Assembly (NCBI GenBank): GCA_025602915.1
Contig: JAHLJZ010000075.1
Span: 49,153-113,152, forward strand
Source: Paraphysoderma sedebokerense
Taxonomy: Eukaryota; Blastocladiomycota; Physodermatomycetes; Physodermatales; Physodermataceae
Direction: 5' to 3'
Length of the DNA: 64,000 nt
Within the stretch, counting starts at the first letter, position 1. Every line of letters starts with the position of its first letter. The notes under the pieces were generated by a model. The model did no database searches, was not told the DNA's origin, and worked only from the letters and a program-made list of their open reading frames with translations. Positions 11,723-14,911 of this stretch are shown here, piece by piece. The translations under genes were made by a program, and so were the position numbers.

Positions 11723-13130
11723 ATGGTGGCATTCAATTCCTTCAATTCTGGCATCCTCTCCGTCCTTTTTCTGTCGACCATCCTCTTGTGTCAGTTCGTC
11801 CCATCCGCTCATTCTACAGCACTTCCATCTCCTGTGTCAAATCCACTAGGAACACCGGAACAAGCTCCTCAACCACCAGGCAGGGCTCCTCCGCAAGAAT
11901 TAGATATTCAAGTACTAGAGCGCCCTGCGAGCTGCAATGCAACTCAGGAATCTAAAGTGTGGTATGTTGGTTAGCAATTTTCTATAGAGTGTTTTAATTT
12001 GCAGAGAGCTACTGTCGAAGTGCATCTCTGTGCTTTTGCCGCTCTGATGATTGGCAAAGTAAAACCTCGGTCCTATTTTAGCATTCTGGCCATCTAAATC
12101 CGTAGTATCGGTCACAACGTTTAACCGCCCAAACTTTTAACGCTCAACCTTTATTCTATTATCCGAATATTGTCCTTCTCTAATGCTGAAATGCACACCT
12201 CCATACTAATAGGGATACCCTTGAAGCTCACTACCAAGGCACATTATTCTCGGATGGAAGTATTTTTGATTCAAGTAGGGGTAAAAATCCAATAAAGTTT
12301 ATTTTGGGTGCAGGAATGGTCATTCAAGGTTCGTATCGTCTTCTGTTACAGAAAGAAATCGTAAAAAAAACTGAATGTGGGGACCGAATGTACTAACGAG
12401 ACCATTCGCCTTCCCTATTCCCTCCCTTGTCTCAATTTTTTGTACCAATTACTGATTCTCTCAACTCAACGAATACATTTCTCTTGATCGATTTGTTTCG
12501 CATTCAAAATTATTTGTATAAACTTCTGTTTTTGGTATAGGTTGGGATCAAGGACTTCAAGGAATGTGTATCGGTGAAAGGAGAAAATTAGTGATTCCAA
12601 GTTGTACGTTACCATAAATCTGTTCTTCTCTTTGTCTGCCTTTCCAAATTAACCAAAAACCTTTTTTTCGCTCTTAATTGCATCTTTTCATCAATCGCTA
12701 TTATTTTTTTTTGTGTCGTCGTATATTCATCTTTCGCACAACTCGGTTATTACCAAACAGGGTTAGGTACTTGATAAGCTATTTTTCCCCTTCCGTATTT
12801 GTTGTCCTTCCTTGCGCTTGTTGATTCATTATATATTACCTAATATAATAACTTTAAAATTGACTGTATCTGTTAACATTCAATTATTTTTCTGTAACTA
12901 GGATACGGCAATGGAGGATTCCCACCTCGAATTCCAGGTGGTGCGTCTCTAGTGTTCGAAGTGTAAGTCAATTGTGTTGCCACCTTTCTCTCTATCTTGT
13001 TTTACTAATTCGATTTTTACGATTCTGTGATTCCTTTTGTTTCTGTCGCTCCGAAAAACTGGTTAATTGGATATACATTTTCTTGGACGATTTTAGAGAA
13101 TTGATGGGTATTGAAAAACCGAAATCTTAG
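11723..13130 (+). CDS. Secretory FKBP-type peptidyl-prolyl isomerase 1
   Basis: An FK506-binding-protein isomerase, entering the secretory pathway. Exons: 11723-11961, 12213-12328, 12541-12603, a 6-nt microexon 12761-12766, 12902-12962, 13097-13130, all in consistent phase. A signal peptide (about residues 1-31, hydrophobic core SVLFLSTILL) and a Pro-rich spacer precede one FKBP domain. Pocket residues are in place: Tyr in HYQG, Phe-Asp in IFDSS, Phe in KFIL, Val-Ile-Trp in MVIQGW, Tyr in LGYG, Phe in LVFEVEL. Without the microexon GGTTAG the join reads TGA, a stop; with it the conserved LGYG forms. It lacks an obvious ER retrieval tail (ends PKS). It lies 254 bp upstream of a similar gene on the same strand, indicating tandem duplication. 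Confidence 0.9.
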
Positions 13131-13384
13131 TGCTGTTGATGTTATTGGGTTCTGAGGGTTTTTGAAAATTGTGTTATAATGTAATTTATTCGTACATAAC
13201 GGATTGATAATACATGCGACTTGGTGATTTTGAATAAAAAATCAGAATGAAGTAAAGTCTGCGAATAGCCCACGGCTTCCTTGGTACTCTGCAAGTCTCT
13301 CCATCCGCGGTCAATTCCCGGATTCCCTCCCACGTATCAGCCAAACCCAACTCCCAAATAACAGATATAACAAATCAAGAAACA

Positions 13385-14911
13385 ATGCGACCATCCCCAC
13401 TCCTCTTTTTATCCCTCCTTCTCCTTTGCTCCCTCCTCACGGGCACCCTCGCCTCAACCAAGAAACGACCGGCCCCAAAAACTCTTCAAATCGGAGTAAA
13501 ATTTCGACCCGAACATTGTAAAGATTCGTCCAAATCTGTCCGAAAATCTAAAAATGGAGATGAATTAGCTATGCATTATCATGGTACTCTTTACGATACT
13601 GGGAAGGTATTTGATAGTTCGGTGGATAGGGGACAAGAGTTTGTGTTTACGATTGGAAGAGGTATGGTGATTAAAGGTTTGTTGTTTGCGTTGAGTTCTT
13701 TATCATTGTGTTATTTTGTGAATTTGAATTCGGAAACAGATCATGTGAAAATGAGAAAATTGTTATTCTTTTTTCTTTATTTCTCTTGATGGATTCATGA
13801 TTCAAAAGTTACAGTTACTGGTAGTCTGGTTTCCCAGTTGTTTATTCTTTTAATCCGTACCTCCCTTTCTTTCCAACATGAAAATGCAAAATCAAAATCT
13901 AACCACCTCATTCCTAATTCCTATACAAATACTAACGTACATTCTTCCCCTTCTAAACTCCTCACAATACTAAAAATTATCATCTCGCCTTTACTTCGGT
14001 ACCATGATAACCACGAAACCACAATCACGCGCTTAAACTCTATCTTCTATTTCTCTCGCTATCTTCCTTTTTTTTGTGACGTTTTTCTTTATTCGTTTCG
14101 CTTTGGGTTTTGATTTTGAAAATAAAGGATGGGAACAAGGTCTCCTCGATATGTGTGTAGGTGAAAAACGAAGATTAGTGATTCCCTCGCGTAAGTTTTT
14201 AAATTCGCAGCACGTGCTTCTTCGGGGTTGACGGTTTAGTCATGGATCGTTCAATTTCGCATTTAGGATGAAAATAAAATGATTCACTTTTTCTGTTTCT
14301 GTTTTGGGTAAACTGACGTATTTGTCTGATTTTTTTTTGATTTGATTTCATTGGGCGAATGTGGATGGTACGATACGACTCTGAATAATTTCTTCATGTG
14401 GGGATGCGAATTCAAATTTTGATGTCATTAGATCTGGGTATGTTATTCACTATTCGTTACTCTTATCGGACAAAACAACGACACCGAAACCATGAATTCT
14501 AACGTCATTTATTATCTTCTTCTTTCTCCGTTCTTTCTTGGTTTATAAAAATCACATGTTGGATACACAAAATAACTAATTACTGGAAATAAAGCATACG
14601 GCGATTCAGGTTCTCCACCTGTTATCCCACCTAAAGCGACTTTGGTGTTTGATGTGTTTGTATCTCTGTTTTCTTATCGTTACTTCATTTATCGTGTTTA
14701 AAGTTGGTTCATCCGTTCCTTGAATTTATCTAACTTCACTTTTTTCTTGCTTTTGTGTTATCAATTTCTTTTGTGTTCTCATTTCGCGGGGTGCTTGGAA
14801 CTGTTTTTCTTTGAAATAATTGGTGTATTTGGAAAAACTTGGAAAACTGGATCATCTAGCGAACTCATGGCCATCAAAAACGCCGAAAACGGAGGTCGCG
14901 TAGAATTGTAA
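13385..14911 (+). CDS. Secretory FKBP-type peptidyl-prolyl isomerase 2 (FKBP2-like, ER)
   Basis: The tandem paralogue of the preceding gene. Exons: 13385-13676, 14128-14190, microexon 14432-14437 (ATCTGG), 14595-14655, 14860-14911. A signal peptide (LLFLSLLLLCSLL, residues ~6-18) is followed by TLQIGVKFRPEHC and a complete FKBP domain: Tyr in HYHG, FDSS, MVIKGW, SHLAYGD, LVFDVEL. The end is RVEL, resembling the RTEL/HDEL retrieval signals of ER-resident FKBP2 proteins, so ER-lumen protein folding is likely. Two introns use GTTTGT donors. The microexon has the same length, phase and protein position as in the paralogue, so it predates the duplication. Confidence 0.92.

What the first reader, a model, noticed from the sequence alone, without database searches (positions are those of the whole stretch)
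12761..14437. Conserved 6-nt microexons in both tandem FKBP genes
In gene 1 the exon GGTTAG (12761-12766) and in gene 2 ATCTGG (14432-14437) both lie in phase 1 between the third and fourth large exons. They complete SWLGYG and SHLAYG, the conserved FKBP S-x-L-G/A-Y-G motif. Without the microexon gene 1 reads a stop at the join and gene 2 loses two conserved residues. Equal length, phase and position in two diverged copies mean the microexon predates the duplication and is under selection. Six-nt exons are near the lower limit for splicing and would be missed by most annotation.
Basis: partly seen in the sequence, partly recalled or inferred. Interest (0 to 1): 0.8.

Follow-up and report, generated by a model that had tools for sequence, protein, structure and literature searches.

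The report
Six-base exons in two FKBP genes
Two neighbouring protein-folding (FKBP) genes each appear to need a tiny six-base exon to complete a conserved part of the protein; it is a tidy example of a kind of exon already known in fungi, not a new phenomenon.

Summary
Two tandem FKBP2-like genes (11723-13130 and 13385-14911) each need a 6-nt exon, 12761-12766 GGTTAG and 14432-14437 ATCTGG, to give gap-free FKBP proteins. A spliced aligner given human FKBP2 chose both exons at exactly these coordinates, also with GC donors allowed. In dinucleotide shuffles a suitable 6-nt exon arises in 39 of 20000 (gene 1) and 134 of 20000 (gene 2); a score-based null is reached by 46 of 3000 and 17 of 3000. 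One gene alone is only moderately convincing; the two together are strong.

Corrections: equal length and phase are not independent evidence, because homology forces them once the outer splice sites are shared. In gene 2 the microexon follows the second large exon. Gene 1 has an in-frame bypass (IP-R-YG). Six nt is not near the floor: fungal exons of 1, 5 and 6 nt are published (PMC12940212, PMC9142197, PMC1184071; passages read). No transcripts and no fungal orthologues were available, so splicing is inferred. Verdict: very probably real, a new member of a known kind, modest interest.

The parts
11723..13130 (+). Gene 1, FKBP2-like; exons 11723-11961, 12213-12328, 12541-12603, 12761-12766, 12902-12962, 13097-13130; 172 aa
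   Evidence: the aligner put the end of exon 1 at 11958 instead of 11961, so that one junction is uncertain
12541..12603 (+). Gene 1 exon 3 (63 nt), ends phase 1, donor GTACGT
12604..12760 (+). Gene 1 intron upstream of the microexon, 157 nt
12761..12766 (+). Gene 1 microexon GGTTAG; completes W, L, G of SWLGYG
12767..12901 (+). Gene 1 intron downstream of the microexon, 135 nt, donor GTACTT
12902..12962 (+). Gene 1 exon after the microexon (61 nt)
13385..14911 (+). Gene 2, FKBP2-like; exons 13385-13676, 14128-14190, 14432-14437, 14595-14655, 14860-14911; 157 aa, ends in RVEL
14128..14190 (+). Gene 2 exon 2 (63 nt), ends phase 1, donor GTAAGT
14191..14431 (+). Gene 2 intron upstream of the microexon, 241 nt
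14432..14437 (+). Gene 2 microexon ATCTGG; completes H, L, A of SHLAYG
14438..14594 (+). Gene 2 intron downstream of the microexon, 157 nt, donor GTATGT
14595..14655 (+). Gene 2 exon after the microexon (61 nt)

Best explanation
Both genes encode FKBP2-like peptidyl-prolyl isomerases with an N-terminal hydrophobic leader, and each contains a constitutive 6-nt exon that supplies two codons' worth of the conserved S-x-L-[G/A]-Y-G loop. The two flanking introns are separate U2-type GT-AG introns, most likely each recognised as a unit (intron definition) and removed one after the other, since six bases cannot be recognised as an exon. The split is probably inherited from the gene before it was duplicated. 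Shown: the sequence, frame, splice-site dinucleotides and homology. Inferred: that it is spliced so in vivo, the order of removal, and the age.
For: Spliced models give full-length FKBPs with no gap at the join (PF00254 at 100.1 and 123 bits against a cut-off of 21.1; gap-free across the join to human FKBP2, PDB 4nnr). Independent spliced alignment recovers both exons, also with GC donors allowed. Forbidding them lowers the score from 256 to 221 and from 263 to 246. Shuffles: 39 and 134 of 20000; 46 and 17 of 3000. All 14 of 14 bacterial relatives fetched have the same spacing, IPxxLxYG-like with no gap, one reading LPPEYGYG. Donors GTACGT, GTACTT, GTAAGT, GTATGT. Four shared intron sites. Exons of 5 and 6 bp are established from cDNA in basidiomycete yeasts (PMC9142197, passages).
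Against: No transcript, no fungal orthologue. Gene 2 without the microexon stays in frame and loses only 17 score units.
Confidence: 0.93

Rival explanations
1. No microexon: the outer sites are joined directly and the proteins carry a shortened loop (gene 2 S-P-Y-G; gene 1 IP-R-YG by the donor at 12601).
For: Both joins are possible in frame.
Against: Each costs alignment score (35 and 17 units), deletes residues kept in 14 of 14 bacterial relatives and in human FKBP2; it would require the same loss in both genes and leave two well-placed AG|N6|GT exons with fitting codons as accidents.
Confidence: 0.04
2. Regulated microexon: inclusion is switched, with skipping giving a truncated gene 1 product (TGA) or a loop-shortened gene 2 isoform.
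For: Six nt keeps frame in gene 2, and skipping makes a stop in gene 1. A regulated fungal microexon is reported for Xlr2 of Trichoderma virens (PMC11121469, abstract and passages).
Against: The residues lie in the core FKBP motif and not in an optional surface loop. No extended similarity of the flanking introns between the copies: short matches only, and none for the downstream intron.
Confidence: 0.07
3. The microexons arose independently in the two genes, or were spread by gene conversion.
For: Gene 1 has an intron (11962-12212) that gene 2 lacks, so introns do turn over.
Against: Four intron sites are shared, and flanking intron sequences show no extended similarity, so recent conversion is unlikely.
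Confidence: 0.08

Closest known systems
Microexons of basidiomycete yeast bglA genes (PMC9142197, passages read)
   Same: Fungal, constitutive in cDNA, shortest exons 5 bp (Sirobasidium magnum) and 6 bp (Rhodotorula minuta)
   Different: Beta-glycosidase genes; introns about 60-81 nt on average there, 134-451 nt here
Microexons of Phanerochaete chrysosporium P450 genes (PMC1184071, passages read)
   Same: Shortest exon 6 bp, in a duplicated gene family
   Different: P450s; mostly gene models
One-nucleotide exon of Fusarium CYP621A (PMC12940212, abstract and passages read)
   Same: Tiny exon inside a conserved motif, inferred by homology and phase
   Different: 1 nt, conserved over many orthologues and backed by SRA reads, which this case lacks
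FKBP2 / FKBP13, ER-type peptidyl-prolyl isomerase (PDB 4nnr, 2pbc)
   Same: Domain, leader, gap-free alignment; 65 of 109 (gene 1) and 68 of 109 (gene 2) aligned residues identical to human
   Different: Tandem pair here; gene 1 has a longer proline-rich N-terminal part and ends KPKS

Membership tests
FKBP-type peptidyl-prolyl isomerase (PF00254) | Pfam FKBP_C above the gathering score | tested here: met
   100.1 and 123.0 bits against 21.1, on spliced models with the microexon
FKBP2 (ER) subgroup | Best solved relative is FKBP2, leader peptide, ER-retrieval C-terminus | tested here: inconclusive
   Gene 1: FKBP2 is the best hit. Gene 2: FKBP2 is third after two wheat multi-domain FKBPs by whole-chain score, but first by best single domain among those shown (132.3 against 96.1 bits). 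Leader and RVEL end seen by eye only; gene 1 ends KPKS. No tree made
Microexon | Internal exon under 30 nt bounded by GT-AG introns | tested here: met
   6 nt, GT-AG on both sides in both genes
Microexon | Included in mature transcripts | not testable with these tools
   No RNA data available
Conserved (ancestral) microexon | Present in orthologues of other species | not tested

The most novel reading that the evidence does not exclude
The split is ancient: the two copies are as far from each other (60 of 113 aligned residues identical) as each is from human FKBP2 (65 and 68 of 109), yet share four intron sites, so a constitutive 6-nt exon in the FKBP core motif may have persisted since early in the lineage, wherever that duplication falls, with intron sequences fully turned over.
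Probability: 0.35. Interest if true: 0.45.

Novelty: new member of a known kind. Interest (0 to 1): 0.28.

Why it matters
If transcripts confirm it, this is a clean pair for asking how splicing handles exons too short to be recognised as exons, and how long such exons persist through duplication. It is also a practical warning: a gene finder that drops the six bases would truncate gene 1 or shorten the FKBP loop. It does not change what is known to be possible.

Tried and rejected
Rejected: GC-AG splicing as a way round the microexon (allowed; same models chosen). Rejected: treating equal length and phase as independent evidence, since homology fixes them. Rejected: the mere occurrence of AG-N6-GT, which is common.

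Led nowhere: own-genome search (no genome held); viral-contig scan (7 stretches matched a pattern, none a relative); genome-contig scan (74 stretches, 14 bacterial loci, 9 of them Agrococcus, useful only for motif spacing). Literature: searches found, by titles listed, no paper on microexons in FKBP genes of fungi; one search returned 3,744 papers of which 40 were listed, and none of the 40 held microexon or micro-exon; one search gave nothing used.

Control genes: ISU1-like, one 95-nt intron, no tiny exon; glutaredoxin, no tiny exon once GC donors are allowed; ARF-like, a possible 22-nt exon.

Full report
Observation. The window holds two head-to-tail FKBP genes on the + strand. My exon models are gene 1: 11723-11961, 12213-12328, 12541-12603, 12761-12766, 12902-12962, 13097-13130; gene 2: 13385-13676, 14128-14190, 14432-14437, 14595-14655, 14860-14911. 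All introns in these models are GT-AG. In gene 2 the microexon lies between the second and third large exons, because gene 2 lacks the first intron of gene 1.

Identity. Both proteins match PF00254 (100.1 and 123.0 bits against a cut-off of 21.1) and human FKBP2 in the PDB, gap-free from the exon before the microexon to the exon after it. Gene 1 and gene 2 share 60 of 113 aligned residues; each shares 65 and 68 of 109 with the human FKBP2 stretch used.

Is the microexon needed? I wrote a spliced protein-to-DNA aligner and gave it the human FKBP2 stretch. With the two microexon acceptors forbidden the scores fell from 256 to 221 and from 263 to 246; the best substitutes were IP-R-YG by a donor at 12601 (gene 1) and S-P-YG (gene 2). 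The aligner put the end of gene 1 exon 1 at 11958, where I put it at 11961; that junction does not bear on the finding.

Chance. With both introns at least 40 nt, each microexon is the only stop-free AG|N6|GT exon in its intron pair. In 20000 dinucleotide shuffles per gene, a 6-nt exon coding x-L-[G/A] arose 39 times (gene 1) and 134 times (gene 2). By alignment score, 46 of 3000 and 17 of 3000 shuffles did as well or better. If the genes are treated as independent, the products are about 1 in 80,000 and 1 in 11,500. Against this, the aligner inserted some exon of 12 nt or less into 887 and 596 of 3000 shuffled introns, and it invented a 1-nt exon in the glutaredoxin gene until GC donors were allowed. 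A tiny exon chosen by an aligner in a single gene is therefore weak evidence; the case rests on both genes and on the exact coding fit.

What the pairing shows. Once the outer splice sites are shared, FKBP homology forces a gap of six bases in phase 1, so equal length and phase add nothing. What is informative is that four intron sites are shared and that the flanking exons are 63 and 61 nt in both. Corresponding exons are 44 of 63 and 40 of 61 nt identical and the microexons 2 of 6, while the introns show only short matches, the best 17 nt at E 0.001 in the intron before the 63-nt exon, 11 nt at E 0.015 in the intron before the microexon, and none in the intron after it. The shared Leu is TTA in gene 1 and CTG in gene 2, as expected if the protein, not the DNA, is conserved.

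Motif spacing. In 14 of 14 bacterial loci fetched with the gene 2 protein the stretch aligned to IPSHLAYG has no gap; one (L012) is identical to it and one (L013) reads LPPEYGYG. Nine of the 14 are Agrococcus, so they are not 14 independent cases.

Mechanism. Established knowledge (recalled) says that six bases cannot be recognised as an exon by factors bound on both sides at once, so the likely route is intron definition with stepwise removal. PMC11121469 (abstract and passages) cites Schizosaccharomyces pombe work on intron definition; I did not read that work. Whether inclusion is constitutive cannot be tested here; its place in the core motif makes regulation unlikely.

Known kind. Fungal exons this small are published: 5 and 6 bp minimum exons in bglA genes of Sirobasidium magnum and Rhodotorula minuta from cDNA (PMC9142197, passages), 6 bp in Phanerochaete P450s (PMC1184071, passages), 1 nt in Fusarium CYP621A with read support (PMC12940212, abstract and passages). 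The searches named in Tried and rejected showed no report for fungal FKBP genes, in one open-access library.

Limits.

Noticed in passing
window 17849-17977, + strand: The glutaredoxin gene (ATG 17665) needs a GC-AG intron (GAAG|GCATGT ... GATTAG|GT) to read VIELDNEGNGAAIQSYL.
   Followed up: yes
   Followed up: partly
window 13130 and 14911: The two FKBPs end differently, KPKS (gene 1) and RVEL (gene 2); the latter resembles an ER-retrieval end, so the copies may act in different places (by eye).
   Followed up: no
window 11723-14911: FKBP introns are 134-451 nt, while those modelled in the ISU1-like and ARF-like neighbours are 70-95 nt.
   Followed up: no
window 6803-7844 and 9175-9645, - strand: Two very similar open frames, the first matching aldo/keto reductase, suggest another tandem pair.
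   Followed up: no
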